DNA of 40,431 bases, from NCBI GenBank assembly GCA_035504215.1, contig DATJSI010000068.1, forward strand, positions 1 through 40,431, given 5' to 3'. How positions within the stretch are numbered: the stretch's first letter is position 1; every line of letters begins with the position of its first letter. A program made the translations under genes and the position numbers. The stretch is from Mycobacteriales bacterium. GTDB lineage: Bacteria > Actinomycetota > Actinomycetes > JAFAQI01. Under the pieces are notes generated by a model that saw nothing but the letters and a program-made list of their open reading frames with translations, searched no databases and was not told the DNA's origin. Of the stretch, positions 7,425-38,975 are shown piece by piece.

Positions 7425-8495
7425 ATGAGTCGATCGCGAAAGCCCGGTCGTACGGCGGCGGCCCGAGCAGCGAGGCTGCTGGGCCTGGCCACGTTGGCGG
7501 CCTCGACCTCGGCGGCGGTCAGCGCGAGCGACGCCGTCGGCGCCGCCCCGAGCTACCACTTCGACCGGCCGGCGGCGATCGCCGCGGCCGGCGGCCGGCT
7601 CTGGATCGCCAACCGGGACGGCAACTCGGTCACGATGGCCGGTGCCGGCGGAGCGCCGCTCGGTGTCCTCGCCGCGGCGAAGTACCGGTTCGGCCGGCCG
7701 GACGCGATCGCCGCGGCCGGCGGCCGGGTCTGGGTGTTGAGCCGGGCCGGCCGGGTCACCGAGCTCCGTGCGAGCAACGGCGCGCTGGTCCGCGTGGTGC
7801 GCGGCTCCAGATACCGGCTGCACGACCCGGTCGCGATCACCGTGGCGGGCGCCGATGTCGTCGTCGCCAGCCGGTCCAGCAACACGGTCACCGTGATCGA
7901 CGCCGCGACCGGCGATCTCGTGCGCGTGGTCTCGAACCACACCGCGTCGGGCTTGCGGCTCGACCACCCGATCGCGCTGGCGGTTCACGCCGGCACGGTG
8001 TGGGTCGCCAACCAGGGCGGGTCGGTGAGCGCGTTCCGGCTGGCCACTGGGACCTTCGTGCGGCGGGTCGCCGCGAAGGCCGACGGCTTCGCGACACCGG
8101 CCGGGATCGCGTATGCCGGCGGCCGGATCTGGGTGTCGGACCAGGCCAGCAACGCCGTGACCGAGCTGCGGACGGACGGGAAGCTCGTGCAGGTGATCAC
8201 GAACTCCAGCAACAACGCGAACTACGGCTTCGACGGCCCGACCGTAGTGGCCGGGCACGGCAAGCAGGTCTTCGTGGTCAGCCCGCCGGGGTCGAGCCCG
8301 ATGGTGACCAAGGTCGAGACCAAGACAGCCGACGGCGACTGGTACGAGTGCAATACGAACAAGCCGAACCCGCACTTCGCCAACCCGACCGGCCTGGCGT
8401 TCCTCGGCACGCACATCTGGGTCGTGAGCCCGGCGAACAACTCCCTCGCCGAGCTGCACTACTCGACCGGCGCCCTGATCAAGCGCTTCGTCTGA
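7425..8495 (+). CDS. Secreted YVTN/NHL-type beta-propeller protein
   Basis: The 356-residue protein starts with a basic N-terminus (MSRSRKPGRTAAARAARLLG) and a hydrophobic signal ending near residue 40. It then carries about six repeats of roughly 45 residues with the pattern (hydrophobic)-AIAAAGGRLWIANRDGNSVT, seen again as AIAAAGGRVWVLSRAGRVTEL, AVHAGTVWVANQGGSVSAF and AYAGGRIWVSDQASNAVTEL. Such repeats form a beta-propeller (YVTN/NHL class), usually a binding or scaffold module outside the cell. No catalytic signature is visible. GGGGTGGG lies just before the ATG. Its stop codon abuts the stop of the convergent phosphoesterase gene with no spacer. Ligand unknown. Confidence 0.82.
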   Translation: MSRSRKPGRTAAARAARLLGLATLAASTSAAVSASDAVGAAPSYHFDRPAAIAAAGGRLWIANRDGNSVTMAGAGGAPLGVLAAAKYRFGRPDAIAAAGGRVWVLSRAGRVTELRASNGALVRVVRGSRYRLHDPVAITVAGADVVVASRSSNTVTVIDAATGDLVRVVSNHTASGLRLDHPIALAVHAGTVWVANQGGSVSAFRLATGTFVRRVAAKADGFATPAGIAYAGGRIWVSDQASNAVTELRTDGKLVQVITNSSNNANYGFDGPTVVAGHGKQVFVVSPPGSSPMVTKVETKTADGDWYECNTNKPNPHFANPTGLAFLGTHIWVVSPANNSLAELHYSTGALIKRFV

Positions 8496-9464
8496 CTAGG
8501 CACCGGCTGACTTCGTACCGGCACGGCGCCAGATGTTCGTGATCGGCCTGCGGTGCTTGCTCTCGCCCAGCGGATGCAGGCCATAGGCCGCCTCCAGCGT
8601 CCGCAGCACGCGGTAGTGGTCGATGCGCTCGGCGTACTTGCCTGGTTTGACGCCGGCGCCGACCATGATCGTGGGGATCTGGTTCGGCACCACGTCCTCG
8701 TTCTCGTCCCACGTGATGATCACCAGCCCGTTGTGGTGCATCGCGGCGTGGATGTAGCGGCCCAGGTGGGTCCGCAGCCAGCTGTCACCCTGCGCGATCG
8801 TGCCGTTGTGCATGTCGTGGTTGAGGTTCGGGATCACGAACGACAGCGCCGGCAGCTTCGCGAACCGCTTCGGAAACGCACGGAACGGCTGATTCGTCGA
8901 CGCGGGCAGGTCGGAGAAGTTGACCCACGGGACGTGCTTGCGCGCGTAGACGCCGACGTAGCAGCCGGTATAGCCGGCGTGCGGGAGGCTCTCGGCGTAC
9001 CCGACGAACCGCTTGCCGGCGGCACGCAGCTCGGAGCCGAGGTTGCGTCCGGCAAAGGTGTGCGGGCACGAGTCGCTCGTGACCCCATGGGTCGAGCCGG
9101 AGAACAACGCGAGGTAGTTCGGCTCGCTCGGATGGGTGATCGCGAGCGAGTGGGTGAAGGATGCGCCTTTGCGGGCGAGCCCAGTGAGGTACGGCGCCTG
9201 CGGGTTGCCGATGATCTGCGAGTAGCCGTGGTTCTCCATCATCACGACGATCGTGTGCGCGGGCCGGGGAACCGCGGGATTGCGACCCGGATGCCTGTCC
9301 GGCCCGACCACAGAGGCGGACCCGGCCGAGCCGCCGGCCGGCAATGTCCCGCCACCCGGCCGCGCGCCGGTCGAAGCGGTCGGCGCGCAACCGGCGACGA
9401 CCAGGGCGGCAAAGGTCGATCCGACGAGCGCGGGGAGACTGATGCGACTCAGCGGGCCTGCCAC
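8496..9464 (-). CDS. Lipoprotein phosphoesterase (acid phosphatase / phospholipase C superfamily)
   Basis: The protein of about 322 residues has a lipoprotein signal (hydrophobic stretch ending VVAGC) and a phosphoesterase-family domain (PF04185 type). It shows MMENHGYSQIIG at the metal site, THPSEPNYLALFSGSTHG and a later TWDENED motif. It should hydrolyse phosphate esters on the outer face of the membrane; substrate unknown. The start is unclear: GTG 9464 lies inside the GGAGG Shine-Dalgarno-like sequence, whereas a CTG at 9452 is spaced 11 bases from it. Upstream in-frame codons to 9662 lie before the promoter at 9490-9518 and are unlikely to be translated from it. Confidence 0.82.
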   Translation of the reverse strand: MAGPLSRISLPALVGSTFAALVVAGCAPTASTGARPGGGTLPAGGSAGSASVVGPDRHPGRNPAVPRPAHTIVVMMENHGYSQIIGNPQAPYLTGLARKGASFTHSLAITHPSEPNYLALFSGSTHGVTSDSCPHTFAGRNLGSELRAAGKRFVGYAESLPHAGYTGCYVGVYARKHVPWVNFSDLPASTNQPFRAFPKRFAKLPALSFVIPNLNHDMHNGTIAQGDSWLRTHLGRYIHAAMHHNGLVIITWDENEDVVPNQIPTIMVGAGVKPGKYAERIDHYRVLRTLEAAYGLHPLGESKHRRPITNIWRRAGTKSAGA

Positions 9465-9489
9465 CTCCGGAAGATCCCTGCCCCGTCCG

Positions 9490-9518
9490 GTTATATGTCC
9501 GCGCTCTACTAATGTCAC
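9490..9518 (-). promoter_or_regulatory. Strong sigma-70 promoter for the phosphoesterase gene
   Basis: The minus strand reads -35 GTGACA (9518-9513), a 17-base spacer and -10 TATAAC (9495-9490), each 5 of 6 to consensus. Transcription should start near 9483, a few bases before the GGAGG sequence. This fixes the gene start to about 9464 or just below. Confidence 0.65.
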
Positions 9519-9621
9519 GCACAGGGCGCCGGGGCGCTCATCAGGTCGCAGGCCGCCGGATCGAAGGGCCTGCGACTGCCATCGAAGGGACCGGCATGGA
9601 CAGACCTCCGGCACGGCGGGC

Positions 9622-11922
9622 ATGACGACCGTGGGCCCGCCCCGCGGCAGCATTCTCGGCACCCGGGTCAGCCGGGTCGAGGACCCGGAGTTCCTGACGA
9701 CCGGCGCGGTCTACACCGAGGACCTGGTCGACGAACGACTCGCGAACGCAGCCAGGATCACCTTCGTCCGCGCACCGATCGCACATGCCCGGATCACCTC
9801 GATCGACACCTCGGCGGCGCTCGCCGCCGACGGCTGCGTCGCCGTCTTCACGGCCGAGGACCTCACCGACGTACCCGCCCAGAAGCCGATGCTGCCGATG
9901 TACCCGGAGCAGGTCGCGCAGCCGCTGCTGGCCACCGATCGGGTCCGCTTCGTGGGAGAACCGGTCGCGATCGTCGTGCACGAGGGCCGCTACAGCGGCG
10001 AGGACATCGCCGAGCTGGTCGAGGTCGACTACGAGCCGTTGCCCCCGGTGATCGATCCGAAGGACGCGCTGACCGGCGACTCGCTGCTCTTCCCCGCGAT
10101 GGAGGACAACGTCGTCCTCCGCCGCGACACCGATGAGCAGGCCGACCTGTTCGCCGACTGCGAGGTGGTGATCACGCAGGAGGTCCTCAACCAGCGAGTG
10201 GCCGTTGCGCCGCTGGAGAGCCGAAGCGCGGCAGCGGTCTGGGCGGACGGGCGGCTGACGACCTGGATCCCGAACCAGGGCGCGCAGAGCACCCAGCAGT
10301 CCGTCGGCGAGATGCTCGGGCTCCCGCTCGAGCAGGTTCGCGTCATCACTCCGGCGGTCGGCGGGGCGTTCGGCGCCAAGTTCGGTGCGGACCCGGAGGC
10401 GGCACTGGTCGGCTGGGCCGCGCGCCGGCTCGGCCGCCCGACCACCTGGGCGGAGACCCGCTCCGAGAACATGGTCGGGATGACCCACGGCCGGGCGCAG
10501 GTCCAGACCGTGAGCATCGGCGGTGACCGGGACGGCAACGTCAAGGCGTACAAGCTGCACGTGCTGCAGGACAGCGGCGCCTACCCGCGGTTCGGCGCGG
10601 TGCTGCCCAGCCTGACCCTGCTGATGGCGCCTGCGGTCTACGACATCGACCGGGTCGAGCTGTCGTTCGTGAGCGTGGTGACCAACACCACGCCGCTCGG
10701 CGCCTATCGCGGCGCCGGGCGTCCCGAGGCCACCGCCGTCATCGAGCGGGCGATGGACCTGTTCGCCGCCGAGATCGGCATGGACCCGGCGGCGGTACGC
10801 CGCCGCAACCTGCTGCCCGCCTTCACCGAGCCGCTGTCCACCAAGGGCGGCGCGCTGTACGACTCCGGCGACTACCCGATGGCGCTCGAGACCATCCTGG
10901 CCGCGGCCGGCTACGAGGGGCTGCGGCGCGAGCAGGCGCTGCGGCGCGAACGCGGTGACACCAAGCAGCTCGGCATCGGCCTGAGCGTTTACGTCGAGAT
11001 CACCGGCGGCGGCGACGAGTCCGGGCCGCCGTCCGAGAACGCGACGGTCGAGATCCACCCGGATGGCACCGCGACGATCCTCACCGGCACCTCGCCGCAC
11101 GGCCAAGGGCACGCAACCGTCTGGGCAATGCTCGCCAGCGACGAGCTGGGCATCCCGGTCGAGAACATCACCGTCAAGTGGGGCGACACCGACCTGGTAC
11201 CCGAGGGTGGCGGCACCGGTGGGTCGCGCAGCCTCCAGCAGGGTGGCGCGGCGGTGCGCCAGGCCGCGCTCGAGCTGATCGAGGTGGCCCGCCGGCGCGC
11301 CTCGGATGAGTTGGAGGTTGCACCGGAGGACCTGGTCGTCGACCTGGACATCGCCGGGCTCGCCGTACGCGGTGACCCGAGCGCGAGGGTCACCTGGGCT
11401 GCACTCGCCGAGAAGGAGCCGCTGAAGGTACGCACCGTCTTCAGCGCGCCGGGCGCGACCTACCCGTTCGGCGCCCATATCGCGGTCGCGGAGGTCGACG
11501 TCGAGACCGGCAAGGCGGTGCTCACCCGCCTGATCGCCCTCGACGACGCCGGCACTCTTGTCAACCCGCTGCTCGCGGAGGGCCAGCGACACGGCGGCCT
11601 GGCCCAGGGGGCCGCGCAAGCACTGGTCGAGGAGGTTCTCTACGACGAGGACGGCAACCCGACCACGACCACGTTCGCGGACTACCCGATCATCACCGCG
11701 ACCGAGCTGCCGAGCTTCGAGCTCGTCACGACAGAGACACCGACGACGTACAACCCGTTGGGGGCAAAGGGAATCGGTGAAGCGGGCACGATCGGTGCGA
11801 CGCCCGCGGTGCAGAACGCGGTCATCGACGCGGTCGCCCACCTCGGCGTCCGCCACATCGACATGCCGACCAGCCCAATGCGTGTCTGGCACGCAATCTC
11901 AGCCGCAAAGGACAACCGATGA
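9622..11922 (+). CDS. Molybdenum hydroxylase large subunit, CoxL form II-like
   Basis: This 766-residue protein belongs to the xanthine oxidase/CO dehydrogenase family and binds the molybdopterin cytosine dinucleotide cofactor. AYRGAGR at residues 361-367 is the form II CoxL signature; form I, the proven CO dehydrogenase, has AYxCSFR. The proposed catalytic Glu is E720 in [16 protein letters not shown] and [13 protein letters not shown] are typical Mo-cofactor loops. The likely substrate is an aldehyde, purine or other heterocycle rather than CO, but this cannot be decided here. The ATG at 9622 is the family-like start; the open frame extends upstream to 9253 through the divergent gene. It overlaps the small-subunit gene by ATGA. 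Confidence 0.92.
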
Positions 11923-19960: not shown

Positions 19961-21637
19961 TCACTCGGTCAAGGTCGCGGTCACGGGACCTGGTTCGACA
20001 GCTGACGCCGTGACGTTCGTCGGCGTCTCCACCACACCGACCCGCGGCGCACGTGAGATCTCGTCGACACTGATGCACAGGATCGCGATGTCGTCGCGAA
20101 GACGATCCGGGTCCACGCCCTCGAGCACCAACGCGCACAGCGAGTCCGCATCGAGGTCGTCCGATGCGCCTTCGACCAAGGCGCGGAGCTCGGCCAACGA
20201 GTCGGACAGCGACACTCCCGGCACTTCCAGGAGACCGTCGGTGAACAGCAGCAGGATCGAACCTGCTGCAACCCGGTACTCGGCTTCCGCGCGCCTGGTC
20301 GGGGTGGCGACCGGAGCACCGAGCACGAGCGACCCGCCGGCGGCCAGCTCGTCGACGGTGCCGTCGGGCCGCCGGACGAACGGCGGCAGGTGCCCGCCGT
20401 TCGCGAACGACAGCAGCCGCTCGCCGTCCGCGTCCGGAGGGCCGAGTACGCCGTAGAAGACGGTCACCAGCTCGGAGATCTCGAAGCTCGACACCAGGTC
20501 GTCGAGGCGGTCGAGGACTTCGGACGGGCGCGCGCCACTCGACGCGTAGGCGCGAAGTGACGCTTGCAACTTCGACATCGCCGCGGCGGCCGCGATGTCG
20601 TGGCCGACGACATCGCCGATCACGATGCCCGTTCGTTCGCCATCGAGTGCGAACACGTCAAACCAGTCGCCGCCGATCTCCTGGTGAGCCGAGCCGGGCA
20701 GGTACCGCGCGGCCAGGCCCAGACCGGGCACGACCGGCAGCGTCGGCAGCAGGCTGAGCTGCAGCGCCTCGGCGACTCGGTGCTCGGTGTCGTACAGCGC
20801 GAGCGCCGACCGCCGGCGCCGGCTCTCGATCTCGACGACCACCGCCATGAGAGCGGTCACCAGCACGCCGCCGCCAAGGACGATCCACGGTGCCGCCGAG
20901 GTCGCGCCCCCGACCAGCGGGTGCTTGGCTGACGCCTGCAGCGTCCAGGTCGTGGAGCCCGCCATCAGTGGCTCGGTGTGGACCAGCCCGGTGAGAGGCA
21001 GCGTGCTAGTGGTCTCTGCAAGGACATCGCGCCGGATCGGTCGCGGAGCGGCATAGATGACGACGCGCAACTCGCTGAAGGGCGCGGCGCCGGCCGACCT
21101 CGGCGCTCCGATCGGACCGAGCAGGTCCTCGCGGTAGAGCACCGTCCCCGCGGGTGCGACCGGAGGGCCCAGCGCGAAGCCGAGCGCGCGGGTCGCACCG
21201 TGCCCGATAACCGCCGTCGGCACCAGCTGTGTCGTGGTCAGCGCCTGCTCGAAGGCGCGCGCTCGGGGCCCGGTGACCACCTCACCCTTGTGCAGGCCGG
21301 CGCCCTCCGCCATCGCGACGACAAATCCGGTCGGCGTCTTGCGGATCAGAGCGAAGGTCACCTGCTGGGTCGAGCCGGTCTCGGCCGCGGCGCTCGCCCG
21401 CTCGAACGCAATGGGCGACTCGTGGGTGGCACGCAGAACTCCGCCCAGCACCTGCAACGGAACCGGCAACGCGCTGATGGAGGAGTCCAGCACGAGTCCG
21501 ACCTCGTTGGTGCGCTCCTTGAGCAGACGACGCTCCTGATCGCGTACCGCGACGCGGGTGACCCAGGCCCCGACTCCCGTGATCACCAGCATCACCACGA
21601 TGACGGCGATGCTGAGCGGCCGCAGCTGTCGTGTCAT
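19961..21637 (-). CDS. Membrane SpoIIE/PP2C serine phosphatase (RsbU-like)
   Basis: The 558-residue protein has a membrane segment (9-29), an extracytoplasmic sensor of about 215 residues, a second membrane segment (251-270) and a SpoIIE-type PP2C phosphatase domain (about 305-535). Metal-binding aspartates are visible at D324 (GGDWFD), D342 (IGDVVGHD), D467 (FTDGLLE) and D515/516 (RDDIAI). It should dephosphorylate an antagonist such as the STAS protein encoded 1.1 kb away. Its ATG overlaps the stop of the HATPase gene by 4 bases, so the two are translationally coupled. The sensor ligand is unknown. Confidence 0.9.
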   Translation of the reverse strand: MTRQLRPLSIAVIVVMLVITGVGAWVTRVAVRDQERRLLKERTNEVGLVLDSSISALPVPLQVLGGVLRATHESPIAFERASAAAETGSTQQVTFALIRKTPTGFVVAMAEGAGLHKGEVVTGPRARAFEQALTTTQLVPTAVIGHGATRALGFALGPPVAPAGTVLYREDLLGPIGAPRSAGAAPFSELRVVIYAAPRPIRRDVLAETTSTLPLTGLVHTEPLMAGSTTWTLQASAKHPLVGGATSAAPWIVLGGGVLVTALMAVVVEIESRRRRSALALYDTEHRVAEALQLSLLPTLPVVPGLGLAARYLPGSAHQEIGGDWFDVFALDGERTGIVIGDVVGHDIAAAAAMSKLQASLRAYASSGARPSEVLDRLDDLVSSFEISELVTVFYGVLGPPDADGERLLSFANGGHLPPFVRRPDGTVDELAAGGSLVLGAPVATPTRRAEAEYRVAAGSILLLFTDGLLEVPGVSLSDSLAELRALVEGASDDLDADSLCALVLEGVDPDRLRDDIAILCISVDEISRAPRVGVVETPTNVTASAVEPGPVTATLTE

Positions 21638-22626
21638 CTGCGGTCGGCGTCCAGGTTCGTTCCCCCGGACGGCGCGGGTTCGTCGACCCCGTAGGGCCAG
21701 GAGGTGGCGGCTTGGCCCGAGAGCTGGCGGACGATCTCGTCGGTGTACCAGCGGCGGAAGCGGACCACCTCCGGCGTCGATGGAGGCGTCAGCAGCTCAC
21801 CGCGCCGGCAACTCGCGTCTGCCTCGTCGAGCTGGTCGGCCATCAGCGCGACCTGGGCATGAGATCCGGAAGGGAACAGCATCGACACGTCGACGGTTCG
21901 CTTGCCCGCCCGCCGCGCAGCCTCGACCTGGGCCCGGCGCTCCTCGTTGCCCACCCCGAACTGCTCGACGATCTTCGCCGCAAGAACCAGCAGGCCCGGC
22001 GCGACCCGCCCACCACCGTGGTCGGTGCCGGACTGCAGCAGCAGTGCGAACTCGCGCACGAGCGCGTCGTGGTGCTCCTCGACGGCGAGGTACGTCGCAA
22101 CCGGCAGCCCGCGCAGCCACACGGTGAAGGCGGGGCCGCCGAGCGTGCCCGGCGGGGCCGCCGCCGGCGCTGGTGCGACCGGCTCGCTGTCGTAGGCGTC
22201 GCGGCTGGTGACTTGGTGCCCCGGGCCGCTGCGGCTCGCACCGTCGGCGACACGGAACCACACCGACTTGCGCATCGCGTCCGCGTGCACGCCCCACTCC
22301 TCGGCGAGCGCCTCGACCAGATGCAGCCCTCGACCGGTCGCCGCGTCCTGCTGATAGGTCTTCAGGACCGGCTTGCTCGGGTTGTGGTCGGAGACCTCGA
22401 TGGTCACCACCGCCCCGGCGCGGGTCGCCGCCACCTCCACCACGTCGGTGGTGTGCAGGATCGCGTTGGTGACCAGCTCGGAGAGCAACAGCTGGACAGT
22501 CGCCAGGCCGTCCGAGGACCACCCGCTCAGGTAACCGGCGAGCCAGGTGCGGGCCTGGCCGACCGCGGCGGGATTCGCGGCAAGGTCGAGCCGTTCGCGG
22601 TCGGGCTGCGCCACGCGGCTCACCAT
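21634..22626 (-). CDS. HATPase anti-sigma kinase-like protein with extra C-terminal domain
   Basis: The 330-residue protein has an N-terminal HATPase_c domain of the RsbW/SpoIIAB type (about residues 10-125). The N-box has E50 and N54 (SELVTNAILH) and the G2-box is GRGLHLVE (98-105). This family phosphorylates a STAS antagonist and binds a sigma factor. Residues about 150-320 form a second, unrecognised domain (LPVATYLAVEEHHDALVREF onward, rich in His, Arg and acidic residues). The C-terminal domain is unusual for an anti-sigma factor of about 140 residues. It is divergent from the STAS gene and coupled to the phosphatase gene, giving a near-complete partner-switching set. Confidence 0.85.
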   Translation of the reverse strand: MVSRVAQPDRERLDLAANPAAVGQARTWLAGYLSGWSSDGLATVQLLLSELVTNAILHTTDVVEVAATRAGAVVTIEVSDHNPSKPVLKTYQQDAATGRGLHLVEALAEEWGVHADAMRKSVWFRVADGASRSGPGHQVTSRDAYDSEPVAPAPAAAPPGTLGGPAFTVWLRGLPVATYLAVEEHHDALVREFALLLQSGTDHGGGRVAPGLLVLAAKIVEQFGVGNEERRAQVEAARRAGKRTVDVSMLFPSGSHAQVALMADQLDEADASCRRGELLTPPSTPEVVRFRRWYTDEIVRQLSGQAATSWPYGVDEPAPSGGTNLDADRR

Positions 22627-26497: not shown

Positions 26498-27442
26498 ATG
26501 TACGAGATCGCACTGACGGTGCGGGCGTGTCTGTCCGCAGGCACCGATGTCGACGTCGCGTGGGTGGTCGAGACGAGGGGGTTCAGCTCGCGCGACCATG
26601 GCGAGGCGCTGGCGATCACTCCCGGCGGTGGGCGAGTCGGGTCGGCCGCCTCTGGCGCCCTCGACGACCAGCTGGCACAGCTCGCGAGCGAACGGCGGAT
26701 CAACCGCATCGTCGACCTGCACGTCGGTGAGCTGGACGCGACCATCGCCGGGCTGTCGTGCGGCGGGGACGCCCGCTGCCTGCTGGTGTCCGCCGCTCAG
26801 CTACCTGACGAGCTCTGGGACGAGCTGCGTGATCGCCGCCCGGTCTGCCTGGTCTCCAAGCTCGACGGCGACGCCGTGACCGCCACGTCGGTCTTCACGG
26901 CGGACACCATCGGCCAGGCCGACCCCGACGCGGCCTCGCTGTTCGGGCGCTCGGTCAGTGCCACCGCGGTGCGCGACGACCTGGTCATCACCGTGTTCTT
27001 CCCGGTTCCGAAGCTGGTCGTGGCCGGCGCCGGTGCGATCGCCGACGCGCTCTCGGACGCCGCCGGGCTGCTCGGCTGGACGACCCAGGTGGTCGGTGAC
27101 GTCACCACTGCCACCGGCGTCATCGGTGGCCTTTCCGGGATCGACAAGGTCGTCGTGATCAGCCACGACAACGAGGTTGCCGGGCCATCGCTGGAAGCGG
27201 CGCTCGCGGGCCAGGCCGGCTACATCGGCGCCCTCGGCTCGCGGCACACCCAGCACTCGCGCGCGCAGTGGCTGGCCGACCGCGGCATCACCGACCTCGA
27301 CCGCGTGCATGGCCCGGCCGGGCTCGACATCGGCGCACGCACGCCGGCCGAGATCGCGGTGTCGATCCTGGCCGAGGCGCTCGCGACCGGTGCCGGACGC
27401 GATGCCGGATCGCTTCGGGCAAGGGATGGCGCGATCCACTGA
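26498..27442 (+). CDS. XdhC-family molybdenum hydroxylase maturation protein
   Basis: The 314-residue protein resembles the XdhC/CoxI family, which inserts or sulfurates the molybdenum cofactor of hydroxylases. An N-terminal XdhC domain (WVVETRGFSSRDHGEAL, residues about 22-38) is followed by the Rossmann-like domain VVAGAGAIADAL and the C-terminal GYIGALGSRHTQHSRAQWL. It lies 13 kb from the large-small-medium operon and is not cotranscribed with it, yet is the only XdhC in the window. It may serve that enzyme. The start ATG has no ribosome-binding site but a TANNNT -10 lies 7 bases upstream. Confidence 0.88.
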   Translation: MYEIALTVRACLSAGTDVDVAWVVETRGFSSRDHGEALAITPGGGRVGSAASGALDDQLAQLASERRINRIVDLHVGELDATIAGLSCGGDARCLLVSAAQLPDELWDELRDRRPVCLVSKLDGDAVTATSVFTADTIGQADPDAASLFGRSVSATAVRDDLVITVFFPVPKLVVAGAGAIADALSDAAGLLGWTTQVVGDVTTATGVIGGLSGIDKVVVISHDNEVAGPSLEAALAGQAGYIGALGSRHTQHSRAQWLADRGITDLDRVHGPAGLDIGARTPAEIAVSILAEALATGAGRDAGSLRARDGAIH

Positions 27443-32274: not shown

Positions 32275-34749
32275 ATGCCCGACGGTCAAGTCCGCGGCCG
32301 GGCGCCGCGCAGCACCGCGCCGCTGCTCACGGTGCGCCGGCTGTCGGCCCAGTACGGCTCCCGGCCGGTGCTCGCGGGCGTGGACCTGGAGGTGCTCCCG
32401 GGCGAGGTGGTCGCGCTGGCCGGCGAGAACGGCGCCGGCAAGTCCACGCTGGTCCGCTGCATCGCCGGCGATCTGACCCCTGTCTCCGGCGAGATCCTCA
32501 TCGCCGGCGAGCGGATCAGGTCCGCGCCGAGCACGGTCGCGCGTCGCGGGGTCGCGGTCGTCTGGCAGGACCTCGCGCTGTGCGACAACCTCGACGTCGC
32601 GTCTAACCTGCTGCTCGGCCGCGAGGACCGGCGCTCCTTGCTGTCCGATCCGCGCTTCCATGCCGAGGCCACGGCGCTCCTGCGCCGGCTGGAGATCCCG
32701 ATCCCCGACACGACCCGACCGGTGGCCACCCTGTCCGGCGGACAGCGTCAGCTGGTCGCGGTCGCACGAGCCATGCGCGAGCAGCCGCGACTGCTGATGC
32801 TCGACGAGCCCACGGCTTCCCTCGGCGTCTTCGAGTCGGCCCAGGTCGAGGGGCTGACCCGCCGGCTGTCCGACGAAGGCACGACGATCGTGCTGGCATC
32901 CCACGACATCGACCAGATGTTCCGGCTCGCGGATCGGATCGTGGTCCTGCGCCAGGGCCGGGTGGTCGCCGACGTACCCACCGCGACGGGACATCCGGAC
33001 GACGTGGTGGCCTTCATGTCAGGCCAGCCGGTGGACTCCTCGCCGCGCCGCCAGCTGGACCGGCTGCACAGCCTGGTCGGCCGGCTGAGCCACGTCGATC
33101 CGTCATCCAGCCTGGCGGTGATCCTCTCCGCGCTCGGTACGGCGCTGGCAGCCGACCGGCTCTGCATCCACCTGCTCGACGGTGACCGGCTGCGGCTTAC
33201 CGCCGCCGTCGGCCTGCCGGAGGACCTGCTCGCCGCGTGGTCGGAGCTCGACACCGGCGCGGCCGGCGGCCCGCCCGGGGAGAGTGCGAACGCACGAGCG
33301 ACCATCATCGACCCGGATGTTCGCGTCGCCGGCGCATGGACGGCTTTCCGCCGGATCGCGGAGCGCGCGAACATCCGCAGCTCCTGGTCGGTTCCGGTGA
33401 CGGGCAGCGGCGGCCTGCTCGGCGTGATCACTGTCTTCCGCCGCAACCGCGGGACGCCGCACCGCGACGAGCTGGACCTGGTGACGTTGTACGCCGGGTA
33501 CGCCGCGAGCACCGCCGAGCGGGACCGGCTGCTCGGCGAGGTCACCGCGCGCAACCGCGTGCTCGAGACGATCCGGGTGGTTCTCGAGCAGCTGGCGGTG
33601 TCGGTCCCGCTCTCGGACGGCTTGGACGTCGCCCTCGACGCGCTGCGGCTGGGGCTCAACGCCGGCGAGGTTGCCCTGATCGGCCGGACGACCGGCGACC
33701 AGCCGAAGTGCCGCGGCTGGTCGGGTGACGCCACCGCCGGGCCCGATCCGGACTCCGCGCTGCTCGTCGCGCTCGATCCGGTGCTCGATCGAAGCACCGA
33801 CCCTCCCGACTCGGCGCCACTCAGCACGGTTGTCGTCGCCGGCACCACGGTGCTCGGCACGCGAGTGCCGAGCCCGGACGGCGCGCTGGCGCTGCTCGCC
33901 GCCTGGCCGGCCGGGAGCGGCGCCGGTCCGAACGACGACGCGGCGGCATTGGTCGAGGACGCGGCGCGTTCGTTGCAGCTCGCCCTCGAGCGCGAGACCG
34001 CCGAACGAGCCCACCGGGAGGCGGCCGGTCTCCGTCGTTCCCAGGAGCTGCAGCGTGACTTCCTCTCGCGGCTCAGCCACGAGCTGCGCACGCCGCTGAC
34101 GGCGATCCACGGGTACGCCGACAGCCTGCTGCAGACCGACGTGACGTGGGACGCAGAAACCCAGGACCGGTTCCTCGCGCGAATCGCGGCCGAGTCGGCC
34201 CGCCTCGGCCGGCTGGTCGGCGACCTGCTCGACCTCTCGGCGATCGACTCCAACCTGTTGCGGCTCCAGCCGGACTGGTGCGACATCGCCCTCATCCTCG
34301 ACGCCGCCCGAGCCTGCCTACCGCTCGAGGACCTCGACCGGGTCAAGATCGACTGCGCCGAGCTGCCGGCGGTGTGGGCCGATCACGACCGGCTCGAGCA
34401 GGTCCTCGTCAACCTCATGGACAACGCGGTCCGCCACAACGCCGTCGACACGAACGTGTTGGTGACGGCGCGGCTCGCCGGCGCGGACCGGCTCACGATC
34501 ACGGTCGCCGACGACGGGGTCGGGATGCCGGACCCGATCGACGGTCCCGCCGACCCCCGCGGGCGGCGCCGCTCGGCGACCTCGGGCGCCGGGCTCGGCC
34601 TCTCGATCGCCCGGGCAATCGTCACGGCCCACGGCGGCATGATCCGCCTGGAGCGCCCGGCCCGCGGAACCTGCTGGCACATCGACCTGCCGATCGCGGG
34701 CAAGGAGCCGGACGCCGAACCGGCTCCGATGGTGACACCAGATGGCTGA
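32275..34749 (+). CDS. ABC ATPase - GAF - histidine kinase fusion protein
   Basis: A single 824-residue frame holds, in order, a complete ABC ATPase domain (about 17-240), a GAF-like domain (about 270-420), a second GAF-like region (about 430-570), HisKA (about 595-660) and HATPase_c (about 700-815). ATPase motifs are Walker A GENGAGKST (50-58), Q-loop Q98, LSGGQ (153-157), Walker B LDE (D177, E178) and H210. Kinase motifs are the H-box SHELRTPLT (H602), N-box VNLMDNAVRHN, DDGVGM and GAGLGLSIARA. No membrane segment or signal peptide is seen. It overlaps the response-regulator gene by 8 bases and precedes a sugar transporter whose ATPase resembles its ATPase domain. I infer that it docks on the permease and links transport to phosphorylation. 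No frameshift or linker that would suggest two genes was seen. Confidence 0.92.
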   Translation: MPDGQVRGRAPRSTAPLLTVRRLSAQYGSRPVLAGVDLEVLPGEVVALAGENGAGKSTLVRCIAGDLTPVSGEILIAGERIRSAPSTVARRGVAVVWQDLALCDNLDVASNLLLGREDRRSLLSDPRFHAEATALLRRLEIPIPDTTRPVATLSGGQRQLVAVARAMREQPRLLMLDEPTASLGVFESAQVEGLTRRLSDEGTTIVLASHDIDQMFRLADRIVVLRQGRVVADVPTATGHPDDVVAFMSGQPVDSSPRRQLDRLHSLVGRLSHVDPSSSLAVILSALGTALAADRLCIHLLDGDRLRLTAAVGLPEDLLAAWSELDTGAAGGPPGESANARATIIDPDVRVAGAWTAFRRIAERANIRSSWSVPVTGSGGLLGVITVFRRNRGTPHRDELDLVTLYAGYAASTAERDRLLGEVTARNRVLETIRVVLEQLAVSVPLSDGLDVALDALRLGLNAGEVALIGRTTGDQPKCRGWSGDATAGPDPDSALLVALDPVLDRSTDPPDSAPLSTVVVAGTTVLGTRVPSPDGALALLAAWPAGSGAGPNDDAAALVEDAARSLQLALERETAERAHREAAGLRRSQELQRDFLSRLSHELRTPLTAIHGYADSLLQTDVTWDAETQDRFLARIAAESARLGRLVGDLLDLSAIDSNLLRLQPDWCDIALILDAARACLPLEDLDRVKIDCAELPAVWADHDRLEQVLVNLMDNAVRHNAVDTNVLVTARLAGADRLTITVADDGVGMPDPIDGPADPRGRRRSATSGAGLGLSIARAIVTAHGGMIRLERPARGTCWHIDLPIAGKEPDAEPAPMVTPDG

Positions 34750-35437
34750 GCGCACCCGTGTGCTGGTCGTCGAGGACGACCCGAACATCGTCGACCTGAT
34801 CCGTTCCAACCTCGCGGTGCGCGGTTTCGACACGTTGGTCTCGACCGACGGCGTGCGCGCGCTCGCGCTGCTCGAGAGCGGGCGCCCTGATGTCGTGCTG
34901 CTCGACCTCATGCTCCCCGGCGTCGACGGCCTGGACCTGTGCCGCGCGATGCGCGAGCAGTCCACGGTCGGGATCATCGTGGTCTCGGCGCGCCGTGGCG
35001 AGAGGGACAAGGTCACCGCCCTCAACGTCGGTGCCGACGACTACATGACCAAGCCGTTCAGCATCGAGGAGCTACTCGCGCGCATCACCGCGACGCTGCG
35101 GCGCAGCCGTCCGGCGCCCGAGGCCGAGCCGCAACGCACCACCCTCGCGATCGGCGACCTGGAGATCGACCTGGCCGGCCAGCGGGTCACCCGGGCGGGA
35201 GCCGAGATCCACCTGACCACGACCGAGTTCGCGCTGCTGCGCGAGCTCGCGATCGACCGCGGCAAGCTGCTCAGCCATGCCGACCTGCTCCGCCGGGTCT
35301 GGGGCGTCGGGTATCAGACCGAGACCGAGTACGTGCGGGTCTATATCCGGCGGCTGCGTGCAAAGCTCGAGGTCGAGGGCGCTCCGCGCCTGATCATCAC
35401 CCAGCCCCGTGCGGGCTACCGGCTGGCCGCGGAGTGA
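34742..35437 (+). CDS. OmpR/PhoB-type response regulator
   Basis: The 231-residue protein has a receiver domain (about 5-120) with acidic pocket E11-D12-D13, phosphoacceptor D55 (VVLLDLMLPG), S82 and K104 (DDYMTKPF). A winged-helix DNA-binding domain of the OmpR/PhoB type follows (about 130-230; LTTTEFALLRELA, TETEYVRVYIRRLR and the wing PRAGYRLA). It overlaps the kinase gene by 8 bases and must be the cognate regulator. The following intergenic region contains 11-base direct repeats, as expected for this family. Confidence 0.95.
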   Translation: MAERTRVLVVEDDPNIVDLIRSNLAVRGFDTLVSTDGVRALALLESGRPDVVLLDLMLPGVDGLDLCRAMREQSTVGIIVVSARRGERDKVTALNVGADDYMTKPFSIEELLARITATLRRSRPAPEAEPQRTTLAIGDLEIDLAGQRVTRAGAEIHLTTTEFALLRELAIDRGKLLSHADLLRRVWGVGYQTETEYVRVYIRRLRAKLEVEGAPRLIITQPRAGYRLAAE

Positions 35438-35473
35438 CCCCGCCCGCAGGGCCTGTTACCGTACCGAGACATT

Positions 35474-35526
35474 GTTCACAGATTGTTTCTGACCCGGGTC
35501 GGATGTTCACGGGGTGTTCATGCAGT
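35474..35526 (+). promoter_or_regulatory. Four 11-base direct-repeat units, PHO-box-like operator
   Basis: GTTCAC-type units start at 35474 (GTTCACAGATT), 35485 (GTTTCTGACCC), 35505 (GTTCACGGGGT) and 35516 (GTTCATGCAGT). Each pair has an 11-base period and the pairs are 31 bases apart. The layout matches the 11-base direct repeats bound by PhoP in Streptomyces (GTTCACC units). A possible -10, TTATCG, lies at 35533-35538. The response regulator encoded just upstream is the obvious candidate to bind, and the target is the transporter gene cluster. Confidence 0.55.
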
Positions 35527-35620
35527 TGAGCCTTATCGTCCGCTCGACCGCACGAATGCTGTCTCGTCCCGGTGGGAATGAGCTCGCCGGGCGCGAACAG
35601 CTCCGCCCCTGGAGGACATC

Positions 35621-36838
35621 TTGCCGTTGATCAACAAGCGCGCGATGGCCGTCGCGCTCGCTGCCGTCGGGCTGACCGCCGCGGCGTGCGGCAGCAGCTC
35701 GTCCGGTGGTACGCCGCCGGCATCGAGCACGTCGCCCACGGCTGCGGGCTCGTCCGCGCCATCGACACCGAACATCACCGCCAGCTCGTTCACCCGTGAC
35801 TTCTCGGCGATGGCGCAGCTGAAGTCGCTCGCCTCGCAAGGGAAGGGCAACGTCGGCGTCATCCTGCCGGACACCACGTCGTCAGCCCGCTACGCCGAGT
35901 TCGACGCCCCGTACCTGACCAAGGCGTTCGAAGACGCCGGTTTGACCTCCTCGCAGATCAGCATCAAGAACGCGCAGGGCTCGGACAGCACGTTCGTCAC
36001 CGACGCCGAGGCCGACATCACCAACGGCGCTTCCGTGCTCCTGATCGACCCCGAGGACCCGGGCACCGGCGGCCGCGTCGAGACCTACGCCAAGCAGCAC
36101 GGCGTCGCGGTCATCGACTACGACCGGATCACCCAGGGCTCGTACTACATCAGCTTCAACAACGTCGAGGTCGGCAAGCTGATCGGCAACGGTTTCGCGA
36201 CCTGCGTGAAGGCGTGGCATGTCGCCAAGCCGGACCTGATCGAGATGAAGGGCGACCCGACCGACAACAACGCGACGTTGTTCGCCGAGGGGTACGGCGC
36301 GGTCATCAAGGCGCACCCGTCATGGACGGTCGCCGCGGTCCCGCCGGGCACCTGGACGCCGGGCACCGCGCTCACCGAGTTCGAGCAGGCCTACACCGCG
36401 CACTCCGGCGTGAACTCCGCGATCATCCCCAACGATGAGAACGGCGCGCCGATCATCACCTACCTGAAGAACCACGGGATCAAGCCGCGGACCTTCCCGA
36501 TGACTGGGCAGGACGCCACCCTGGTCGGCCTGCAGAACATCCTGTCCGGCTACCAGTGCGGCACTGCGTACAAGCCGATCTACCTCGAGGCCCAGGCAGC
36601 GGCTGCCGTCGCGATGTACGTGCGCGCCGGCCAGACCCCGCCGTCGGCTCTGGTCAACGGCTCTACCGCCAACCCGAACAACCACGGCAAGGCGATGCCG
36701 TCGGTCCTGCTCAAGCCGGAATGGGTCACCCCGTCCAACATGAACGCGACCATCATCAAGGACCAGTTCGTGCCGGCCAAGCAGCTGTGCACCAGCAAGT
36801 ACAAGGCAGCCTGCAAGGCAGCGGGGATCAACGGCTGA
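35621..36838 (+). CDS. Lipoprotein sugar-binding protein of a CUT2-type ABC transporter
   Basis: The 405-residue lipoprotein (lipobox AAAC, Cys at 23) resembles periplasmic-binding-protein-like I sugar receptors, nearest in feel to XylF. GVILPDTTSSARYAEFDAP, NGASVLLIDPEDPGTGGRVE, GVAVIDYDRIT and DENGAPIITYLKNHGIKPRT are typical of this fold. It would bind a sugar outside the membrane and deliver it to the permease at 37662. The start is TTG 35621, 5 bases after GGAGG; a second ATG lies at 35645. The substrate is not determinable. The upstream region carries the direct repeats and a leader of about 75 bases. Confidence 0.93.
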   Translation: MPLINKRAMAVALAAVGLTAAACGSSSSGGTPPASSTSPTAAGSSAPSTPNITASSFTRDFSAMAQLKSLASQGKGNVGVILPDTTSSARYAEFDAPYLTKAFEDAGLTSSQISIKNAQGSDSTFVTDAEADITNGASVLLIDPEDPGTGGRVETYAKQHGVAVIDYDRITQGSYYISFNNVEVGKLIGNGFATCVKAWHVAKPDLIEMKGDPTDNNATLFAEGYGAVIKAHPSWTVAAVPPGTWTPGTALTEFEQAYTAHSGVNSAIIPNDENGAPIITYLKNHGIKPRTFPMTGQDATLVGLQNILSGYQCGTAYKPIYLEAQAAAAVAMYVRAGQTPPSALVNGSTANPNNHGKAMPSVLLKPEWVTPSNMNATIIKDQFVPAKQLCTSKYKAACKAAGING

Positions 36839-36843
36839 ACCGC

Positions 36844-37656
36844 ATGACAGTTGACGCAAGCGCAGAGGCCCGGTCACCAGACCGGGCCTCTGCGGCACCG
36901 CTCCTCCAGCTGGAAAAGGTCGGCAAGAACTTCGGCCCGGTGCAAGCGCTGAAGGACGTGGACCTCGAGATCCACCCCGGTGAGGTCCTCGCACTGGTCG
37001 GTGACAACGGCGCCGGCAAGTCGACGATGATCAAGACCATCTCCGGCATCTGGGGTGCTGACCACGGCCGGATCCTGTGGGAGGGCAAGGAAGTCCACAT
37101 CCGCAATCCGCGTGACGCCGCAGCCCTCGGCATCGCGACGATGTACCAGGACCTCGCACTGTGCGACAACCTCGACATCGTCCAGAACATGTTCCTGGGC
37201 CGCGAACCCGCGCCGCACTTCTTCCTCGACGAGACCGCAATGGAGATCTCCGCGCGGCGTACCTTGGCGGACCTGTCGGTGACGACGGTGCGCTCGATCC
37301 GGCAGCCGGTCGGGTCGCTCTCCGGCGGGCAGCGGCAGGCGGTCGCCGTCGCCCGTGCCGTGCTCGAAGACGCGAAGCTCGTCATCATGGACGAGCCGAC
37401 CGCCGCCCTCGGTGTCTCGCAGACCGCAATGGTGCTCCGACTGGTCAAGAGCCTGAGCGAGCGGGGCGTCGCCGTCCTGCTGATCTCGCACAACCTCAAC
37501 GATGTGTTCGCGGTCGCGGACACTCTCGCCGCGCTTTATCTCGGCCGGATCGCCGGGATCGAGAAGGTCGCAGACATCGACACGCAACGCGCGGTAGAAC
37601 TCATCACAACCGGATCGATCGCCACACACAGCGCGAACGGCCGCGGGGAGGGCTGA
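36844..37656 (+). CDS. CUT2-type sugar ABC transporter ATPase, single domain
   Basis: The 270-residue ATPase has Walker A GDNGAGKST (53-61), Q-loop Q102, LSGGQ (159-163), Walker B (D183, E184) and H216. It is a single ATPase domain rather than the double RbsA/XylG type, so it works as a dimer or with another ATPase partner. QDLALCDNLD at 102-111 matches residues 98-107 of the kinase fusion. It begins 5 bases after the binding-protein stop. A perfect hairpin spans its first 6-17 codons, which are poorly conserved, so a later start cannot be ruled out. Confidence 0.93.
   Translation: MTVDASAEARSPDRASAAPLLQLEKVGKNFGPVQALKDVDLEIHPGEVLALVGDNGAGKSTMIKTISGIWGADHGRILWEGKEVHIRNPRDAAALGIATMYQDLALCDNLDIVQNMFLGREPAPHFFLDETAMEISARRTLADLSVTTVRSIRQPVGSLSGGQRQAVAVARAVLEDAKLVIMDEPTAALGVSQTAMVLRLVKSLSERGVAVLLISHNLNDVFAVADTLAALYLGRIAGIEKVADIDTQRAVELITTGSIATHSANGRGEG
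36861..36894 (+). terminator. Perfect 15-bp hairpin between binding-protein and ATPase coding sequence
   Basis: CGCAGAGGCCCGGTC (36861-36875), ACCA and GACCGGGCCTCTGCG (36880-36894) form a perfect 15-bp stem with a 4-base loop, 22 bases after the binding-protein stop and inside the first codons of the ATPase gene. It has no T-tract. It may stabilise the upstream mRNA or partly terminate, so that more binding protein than ATPase/permease is made. Confidence 0.65.
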
Positions 37657-37661
37657 CACCG

Positions 37662-38975
37662 ATGACGACCTCGCGTCCGGACACCCAGGTCGAAGGCGAC
37701 ACCCTCGAAAGTCCTGACCCCACGAACGCCCCGGCACTGCTCGGCGGCAACGAGCTGGTCGCGAACTCCCTCGGCGAGTACATCGCGGGAATTGGCAAGC
37801 GGATCCGGGCCGGCGAGAGCGGCGCGCTCCCGGTCGTCGTCGGCCTCGTCATCATCGTCGCGATCTTCCAGAGCCAGAACTCGCACTTCCTGTCGACCAC
37901 GAACCTGACGAACCTGATCGAACAATCCGGCGTCTTCGTGCTGTTCGGCATGGCGGAGGTCTTCGTTCTCCTGCTCGGTGAGATCGACCTGTCAACGGGA
38001 TACGTCGCCGGCGTCGGCGCGGTGGTCACAGGGGAGCTCGCCACCGACCCGCACAACGTGAACTGGCTACTCGCGGTCATCGCCGGGTTGGCCGTGTGCG
38101 CGGTGATCGGCGCCGTCCAGGGTCTGCTCGTCACGCAACTCGGGCTGCCCTCGTTCGTCGTCACACTGGCCGGCCAGCTCGGCGGCTACGGGCTCTTGCT
38201 TTGGCTGATCGAGAAGGACAAGTCAGCCACTGGGGGCAGCATCGCGGTGACCAGCAATGTGCTCAACGACATCGTCAACGGCTCGATGACTCCGACCGCC
38301 GGTTGGGTGCTCATGATCGTCGTCGTCGCGGTGTTCGGAGTGCTCACGGTGTTCCAGCACGAGCGACGTCGGCGCAGCGGCCTGGTCACACCGCCACTCG
38401 CCCTGACCATCATCAAGATCGCGGTTGTTGCCGCGGCCGGCATTGTGCTGGTGCTCGTGTGTAACGCCAATCGCGGATTCGGGCTCACCCACCTCGTCGG
38501 TGTGCCGTGGATCGTGCCGATCCTGCTCGCCGTGTACGCGATCTACACCGTGCTGCTCGGCCGGATGCGCTTCGGCCGCTACCTCTACGCGATCGGCGGC
38601 AATGCCGAGGCGGCCCGCCGGGCCGGCATCAACCTGACCCGCGTGCGGCTGATCGCTTTCATCCTGTGCAGCTTCACGGCCGGGTTGGCCGGCATGGTCT
38701 ACCTGTCGCAGCTCGGGTCCGTCTCCAGCGACGTGCCGGGCGGCAACCTCGTGCTGTACGCCATCGCGGCCGCGGTGATCGGCGGCACCAGCCTGTTCGG
38801 CGGGCGCGGCAAGATGATCCACGCGGTCCTCGGTGGCGTGATCATCACCACGATCTACAACGGGATGGGGCTCATTCAGATCGGCGCGGCCGGCCAGAGC
38901 ATGGTCATCGCGCTGGTCCTGCTCGCAGCCGTCACCGTCGACGCCGTCGCCCGGCGGGGGCGCGCGAACTCCTGA
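37662..38975 (+). CDS. CUT2-type sugar ABC transporter permease
   Basis: The 437-residue permease has a soluble N-terminus of about 60 residues and about ten hydrophobic helices. GGNAEAARRAGI (312-323) is the cytoplasmic signature of the RbsC/XylH permease family that meets the ATPase. AAAVIGGTSLFGGRGKMIHA is a second conserved region near the C-terminus. GGAGG lies upstream of the ATG and the gap from the ATPase stop is 5 bases. With one permease and one single-domain ATPase, the complete transporter should be a permease dimer with two ATPase domains. Confidence 0.93.
   Translation: MTTSRPDTQVEGDTLESPDPTNAPALLGGNELVANSLGEYIAGIGKRIRAGESGALPVVVGLVIIVAIFQSQNSHFLSTTNLTNLIEQSGVFVLFGMAEVFVLLLGEIDLSTGYVAGVGAVVTGELATDPHNVNWLLAVIAGLAVCAVIGAVQGLLVTQLGLPSFVVTLAGQLGGYGLLLWLIEKDKSATGGSIAVTSNVLNDIVNGSMTPTAGWVLMIVVVAVFGVLTVFQHERRRRSGLVTPPLALTIIKIAVVAAAGIVLVLVCNANRGFGLTHLVGVPWIVPILLAVYAIYTVLLGRMRFGRYLYAIGGNAEAARRAGINLTRVRLIAFILCSFTAGLAGMVYLSQLGSVSSDVPGGNLVLYAIAAAVIGGTSLFGGRGKMIHAVLGGVIITTIYNGMGLIQIGAAGQSMVIALVLLAAVTVDAVARRGRANS

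What the first reader, a model, noticed from the sequence alone, without database searches (positions are those of the whole stretch)
32275..38975. Histidine kinase fused to an ABC transporter ATPase beside its transporter
One continuous 824-residue protein has all motifs of an active sugar-type ABC ATPase (K56, Q98, LSGGQ, D177/E178, H210) and of an active histidine kinase (H602, N-box, G-boxes), with GAF-like regions between. It is followed by its response regulator (8-base overlap) and a CUT2-type transporter whose ATPase gene encodes only one ATPase domain. Transporter-coupled kinases are known (BceS with BceAB, PhoR with PstB), but there the ATPase is separate. Here the sensor would be the ATPase domain itself, so the kinase could form a mixed ATPase dimer with the transporter ATPase and sense transport, sugar load or ATP state. 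I know of no description of this arrangement.
Basis: partly seen in the sequence, partly recalled or inferred. Interest (0 to 1): 0.9.

Follow-up and report, generated by a model that had tools for sequence, protein, structure and literature searches.

The report
Sensor kinase carrying a transporter's motor
Some actinobacteria make a signalling kinase with a complete sugar-importer ATPase built in as its input domain, always beside an importer's binding protein and membrane channel, and in one branch the importer's own ATPase gene is missing, which suggests that the kinase plugs into the channel to sense sugar.

Summary
Window 32275-34749 is one unbroken 824-residue protein (ABC ATPase, two GAF-type domains, HisKA, HATPase_c), followed by its OmpR/PhoB-type regulator (8-base overlap), a sugar-binding protein, a single-domain ATPase and a permease. 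It is no artefact: 22 relatives with the same domain order were found in other actinobacterial genomes, and all 20 with enough flanking DNA sit beside a binding-protein and permease pair. Three new results bear on mechanism. (1) The gap before the transporter genes holds a four-half-site direct repeat (35474-35520), unique in the genome and at the same place in five other loci; near-identical transporter operons without the kinase lack it. So the pair most likely regulates its own transporter. (2) In one supported clade of 14 loci the operon has binding protein and permease but no ATPase gene. (3) The kinase ABC domain keeps the transporter-type permease-docking groove (66% identity there, 33% elsewhere). 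Docking, signal direction and substrate are inferred. No description of this architecture was found in the papers searched.

The parts
32275..34749 (+). ABC ATPase-GAF-GAF-histidine kinase fusion, 824 aa
   Evidence: Pfam, family alignment, structure model
32323..32979 (+). ABC ATPase domain, residues about 17-235; Walker A 50-57, Q98, LSGGQ 153-157, D177/E178, H210; permease-docking groove about residues 95-118
33100..33510 (+). GAF domain 1, residues 276-412
   Evidence: Pfam GAF/GAF_2
33610..33939 (+). second GAF-like domain, residues about 446-555
   Evidence: not found by Pfam; secondary-structure order of the model only
34051..34251 (+). HisKA, residues 593-659, phospho-acceptor H602
   Evidence: H602 invariant
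34381..34695 (+). HATPase_c, residues 703-807
34742..35437 (+). response regulator, OmpR/PhoB type, acceptor D55
   Evidence: Pfam Response_reg + Trans_reg_C
35474..35520 (+). four-half-site direct repeat GTTYA-N6-GTTY-N16-GTTYA-N6-GTTYA, likely operator of the regulator
   Evidence: unique in own genome at up to 3 mismatches; same place in five other loci
35621..36838 (+). sugar-binding lipoprotein, Peripla_BP_4 (TTG start; 35627 is possible by comparison with G001)
36844..37656 (+). transporter ATPase, a single ABC domain
37653..38975 (+). permease, BPD_transp_2, coupling loop GGNAEAARRAGI

Best explanation
A cytoplasmic sensor kinase whose input domain is a transporter-type ATPase, and which senses by docking on its neighbour importer's permease. 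The kinase dimer (through HisKA and the long helices) presents two ABC domains that can pair and sit on the permease dimer as a transporter ATPase pair would. Sugar-loaded binding protein engaging that permease changes the nucleotide-driven opening and closing of the ABC pair. The change passes through the two GAF domains, which may add an intracellular ligand, and the connecting helices to H602. Phosphate goes to D55 of the regulator, which binds the four half sites at 35474-35520 and controls the binding protein-ATPase-permease genes. In the window's clade the kinase shares the permease with the ordinary ATPase; in the clade without an ATPase gene, binding protein and permease have become a dedicated receptor for the kinase, or the kinase itself powers transport. 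Shown: architecture, conservation, co-occurrence, operator-like repeat, absence of the ATPase gene. Inferred: phosphotransfer pair, docking, sign of regulation, substrate.
For: Fusion conserved in 22 relatives; binding protein and permease adjacent in all 20 with enough flank. Fourteen loci keep kinase-regulator-binding protein-permease without an ATPase gene, one clade (support 98/96). Groove residues 95-118 are 66% identical to transporter ATPases against 33% for the remainder, while a tandem CUT2 ATPase has only 32-36% there. Permeases of no-ATPase operons form their own clade with an altered coupling loop, GSN..ARRAGI against GGN.EAARRAGI. Operator-like repeat once per genome at the transporter promoter in four genomes scanned whole, none in four genomes of the other types, reversed control none. 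Catalytic motifs kept in 22 of 23 kinases.
Against: No complex was modelled or measured. The groove resemblance may partly be shared ancestry. No co-variation between cognate kinase ABC domain and ATPase was seen. Other operons in the f20 genomes encode single-domain ATPases that could serve the permease. Transporters 69-80% identical to the window's work without any kinase in G004 and G008, so the kinase is not needed for transport there. In G759 the ABC domain has lost the Q-loop Gln, signature Ser and H-loop His.
Confidence: 0.5

Rival explanations
1. Mixed dimer: one kinase ABC domain pairs with one transporter ATPase on the permease, so the kinase rides in the transport cycle of the ordinary transporter.
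For: In 7 loci the ATPase is a single-domain protein in the same gene group; both ABC domains have complete motifs.
Against: Fourteen loci have no ATPase gene in the operon; a kinase dimer would leave a second ABC domain unpaired or need two transporters; no cognate co-variation.
Confidence: 0.15
2. Soluble energy or ligand sensor: the ABC domain never touches the permease; it acts as an ATP-driven switch inside a cytoplasmic GAF kinase that merely regulates the neighbouring transporter.
For: No transmembrane helix in the kinase; GAF domains commonly bind small ligands; the kinase-regulator-operator link alone explains the co-occurrence in the 7 ATPase-containing loci.
Against: Does not explain why the permease-docking groove is kept, nor why the ATPase gene rather than the permease is missing in the 14-member clade.
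Confidence: 0.25
3. Vestigial fusion: the ABC domain was captured once and has no role in signalling.
For: The kinase ABC domains group together, consistent with one origin; G759 shows motif decay.
Against: Walker A, Q-loop, Walker B and H-loop are kept in 22 of 23 proteins across distant families.
Confidence: 0.05

Closest known systems
BceAB-BceS/BceR and related peptide-resistance modules
   Same: A kinase that reads the ATP-driven cycle of an ABC transporter and controls that transporter's genes (PMC10314905, PMC6978683)
   Different: There the kinase is a membrane protein contacting BceB and the ATPase is a separate chain; here the kinase is soluble and carries the ATPase domain itself, beside an importer with a binding protein
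PstSCAB-PhoU-PhoR
   Same: An importer ATPase (PstB) relays transport state to a kinase (PMC6978683)
   Different: Relay through PhoU and a separate PstB; negative signal; no fusion
SLC5/STAC histidine kinases (CbrA, CrbS, RpuS) and KsAmt5
   Same: A transporter part fused to a histidine kinase as its sensor (PMC9100948, PMC8534201)
   Different: Those fuse a membrane translocation domain of a secondary transporter or channel; here the cytoplasmic ATPase of an ABC importer is fused and the membrane part is a separate protein
CUT2 sugar importers with a single-domain ATPase
   Same: Binding protein, ATPase and permease of the window belong to this kind; 77-79% identical ATPases in G004 and G008
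   Different: Those operons have no fusion kinase and no four-half-site operator

Membership tests
HisKA/HATPase_c histidine kinase | HisKA with phospho-acceptor His, N-box and G-boxes | tested here: met
   H602, N713, N717 invariant
HisKA/HATPase_c histidine kinase | autophosphorylation and transfer to the cognate regulator | not testable with these tools
   adjacent overlapping regulator only
ABC transporter ATPase (sugar type) | Walker A, Q-loop, signature, Walker B, H-loop | tested here: met
   window protein complete; 22 of 23 family members keep Walker A/B, Q and H, G759 does not
ABC transporter ATPase (sugar type) | docks on and energises a permease | not testable with these tools
   groove similarity only
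Bce-type module | membrane-anchored kinase with a separate BceA-type ATPase and BceB-type permease | tested here: not met
   ATPase is in the kinase chain; the partner is a BPD_transp_2 permease with Peripla_BP_4 binding protein
SLC5/STAC or Amt-fused kinases | membrane transporter domain in the kinase chain | tested here: not met
   no such domain found by Pfam in P0001
CUT2 importer (neighbouring genes) | Peripla_BP_4 binding protein, BPD_transp_2 permease, sugar-type ATPase | tested here: met
   sugar substrate not tested

The most novel reading that the evidence does not exclude
An ABC importer rebuilt as a receptor: in a deep actinobacterial clade the permease's own ATPase was replaced by the kinase, so that binding protein, permease and kinase form one transmembrane sugar receptor in which the ABC domains are the transmission element; the window's clade is the state in which kinase and ATPase still share the permease.
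Probability: 0.35. Interest if true: 0.9.

Novelty: new variant of a known kind. Interest (0 to 1): 0.77.

Why it matters
Kinases that read ABC transporters are known, but how a transport cycle becomes phosphorylation is hard to study because the contacts are indirect. Here the transporter-type ATPase and the kinase are one chain, and two matched states (operons with and without a transporter ATPase) exist in related genomes. That makes the question whether a kinase senses transport through an ATPase domain directly testable by mutating single motifs. It would also show a route by which an importer becomes a receptor for a soluble kinase.

Tried and rejected
Assembly or frameshift artefact: rejected, same frame in independent genomes. 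Isolated fusion: rejected (21 of 21 linked). Recent duplication of the operon's own ATPase into the kinase: rejected, kinase ABC domains group apart from the transporter ATPases (quick tree, some long branches). Co-variation of kinase ABC domain with its cognate ATPase: no signal. LacI-like palindromes (GTAAACG-CGTTTAC) in the Solirubrobacterales and f20 gaps were considered as the regulator site; I kept the direct repeat because its 11-20-11 register is shared by six loci, although the Solirubrobacterales fit is weaker (2 mismatches). The f20 loci show no such repeat; their target is unknown. Plasmid search: only ordinary ABC or kinase hits. The genome-contig scan used two narrow peptide patterns and missed the f20 genomes, so absence outside Actinomycetota is not shown. 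Rfam and tRNA scans of the window: empty. G773 is an ordinary GAF/PAS kinase without ABC. Literature searches gave no description of an ABC ATPase-histidine kinase fusion; subscription papers, InterPro and MiST could not be searched. A complex could not be modelled with the tool given.

Full report
Observation. Window 32275-34749 encodes one uninterrupted 824-residue protein. Pfam finds ABC_tran, GAF, HisKA and HATPase_c in that order, all above their cut-offs. The structure model (20-row alignment, mean pLDDT 79, pTM 0.38, so relative placement of domains is not reliable) shows ABC domain, helix, GAF (about 276-395), helix 397-441, a second GAF-like fold (446-555), helix 556-619 running into HisKA, then the catalytic domain. 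The best whole-chain fold match is a bacteriophytochrome, followed by many transporter ATPases. The response regulator starts 8 bases before the kinase gene ends. Binding protein, single-domain ATPase and permease follow.

It is a family. In its own genome the protein is single copy; the next best hit is the neighbouring transporter ATPase. Searches with the whole protein, its GAF region and the GTDB contigs gave 22 further members: G001 of the same family (a Frankiales MAG, 70%), G034 (57%), a short contig labelled Melainabacteria, two Solirubrobacterales MAGs, G171, twelve genomes of one family coded f20, and G542, G762, G629, G759 of another class. They cover at least six families and at least two, probably three, classes. 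Every one has ABC, GAF and kinase parts in one frame. It is rare: 16 of 394 sampled genomes of the class had a strong match (ten weaker matches were not members of the fusion family), and 3 of 396 in the phylum sample, the window's own genome included.

Neighbourhood. Flanks were annotated by comparison with the window proteins and key genes confirmed with Pfam. Of 21 loci with enough DNA, counting the window, all have kinase, regulator, binding protein and permease in that order and direction. The other two (G034, BOG) stop at a contig end. Seven (window, G001, two Solirubrobacterales, G171, G542, G762) have the ATPase gene between binding protein and permease. Fourteen (twelve f20, G629, G759) do not: in L059 the binding-protein and permease reading frames overlap, leaving no room. 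In nine f20 genomes a separate binding protein-ATPase-permease cassette follows, behind a ROK-type repressor gene where checked; in G108 one precedes on the other strand; in G200 and G209 similar cassettes lie elsewhere in the genome. An ATPase from another operon could therefore in principle serve the permease. The kinase tree puts the fourteen in one clade (98/96, one change). Their permeases also form one clade, with an altered coupling loop (GSN..ARRAGI against GGN.EAARRAGI). In that table two rows labelled HKop by a distance rule, L065_G108_HKop and L070_G171_HKop, are neighbouring cassettes; the true operon permeases are L065_G108_HKop2 and L070_G171_other.

Operator. Between regulator and binding protein the window holds GTTCACAGATTGTTTCTGACCCGGGTCGGATGTTCACGGGGTGTTCA (35474-35520): four half sites spaced 11, 20 and 11. 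Direct repeats of 11 bp are the usual layout for OmpR/PhoB-type regulators (established knowledge). With up to 3 mismatches it occurs once in the genome. The same register lies in the same gap in G001 (0 mismatches), G542 (1), G762 (2) and both Solirubrobacterales (2), and nowhere else in the loci read. A scan of eight genomes finds one site each in G000, G001, G542 and G762, none in G004 and G008 (77-79% identical transporter ATPase, no kinase) or in G629 and G200 (no ATPase gene), and none for the reversed pattern. G171 lacks it. So in the ATPase-containing type the pair very likely controls its own transporter and, by this double site, nothing else in the genome.

What the ABC domain does. 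Walker A, Q, Walker B and H are kept in 22 of 23 proteins; the no-ATPase clade has LSRG in place of LSGG (one clade, so one event), and G759 has lost the Q-loop glutamine, signature serine and H-loop histidine. Kinase ABC domains group together against 38 transporter ATPases, one of them a tandem type (quick tree). Yet residues 95-118, which follow the Q-loop and form the groove for the permease's coupling helix in known importers (established knowledge), are 66% identical between kinase ABC domains and transporter ATPases while the remainder is 33%; a tandem CUT2 ATPase from the same genome has only 32-36% there. This points to a shared docking partner, though shared ancestry contributes.

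Mechanism. The kinase dimer carries two ABC domains, the permease is encoded by one gene, and the kinase stays with permease and binding protein even where the ATPase gene is gone. I therefore favour a kinase dimer docking on the permease in place of the ATPase dimer and reading binding-protein engagement through the ABC cycle (0.5). A soluble energy or ligand sensor is the main rival (0.25). G759's degenerate ABC domain suggests that in the no-ATPase clade the permease may act as receptor rather than pump. Docking, sign of regulation and the sugar are inference.

Known systems. BceAB-BceS and PstB-PhoU-PhoR are kinases reading separate ABC transporters (PMC10314905, PMC6978683). SLC5/STAC kinases and KsAmt5 fuse membrane transporter domains to kinases (PMC9100948, PMC8534201). 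None fuses the ATPase of an ABC transporter to the kinase. My literature searches found no such description, with the limits stated under Tried and rejected. I rate it a new variant of transporter-coupled signalling, with a receptor-conversion reading that would be more.

Noticed in passing
L098 (G759), kinase gene at 8152-11532 (-): The kinase of a no-ATPase operon has a partly degenerate ABC domain (Q-loop Gln, signature Ser and H-loop His replaced) while Walker A and B stay, as if ATP is bound but not hydrolysed.
   Followed up: partly
L071 (CAJCIY010000264.1): A contig labelled Candidatus Melainabacteria carries a kinase about 71% identical to the window's; probably a mislabelled or contaminated bin.
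   Followed up: no
L058 13005-17563 and the same place in eight other f20 loci: A second binding protein-ATPase-permease cassette with its own ROK-type repressor follows the kinase operon; a GTAAAC/GTTTAC element upstream of its binding-protein gene resembles the one in the Solirubrobacterales kinase loci.
   Followed up: partly
window 9253-11922 and 26498-27442: Molybdenum hydroxylase large subunit (xanthine dehydrogenase type) and an XdhC-type maturation protein.
   Followed up: no
window 19961-21637 (-) and 21634-22626 (-): A SpoIIE-type phosphatase gene next to an anti-sigma-type HATPase_c_2 protein, a possible partner-switching pair.
   Followed up: no
L056 9300-9640 (G001, upstream of the kinase): Tandem repeats of about 50 bp (CGCCCTCAGCCCGA.TTCACCCACGCAATGTGGCATTGCTAGGCGAAAAC) lie upstream of the kinase gene.
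   Followed up: no
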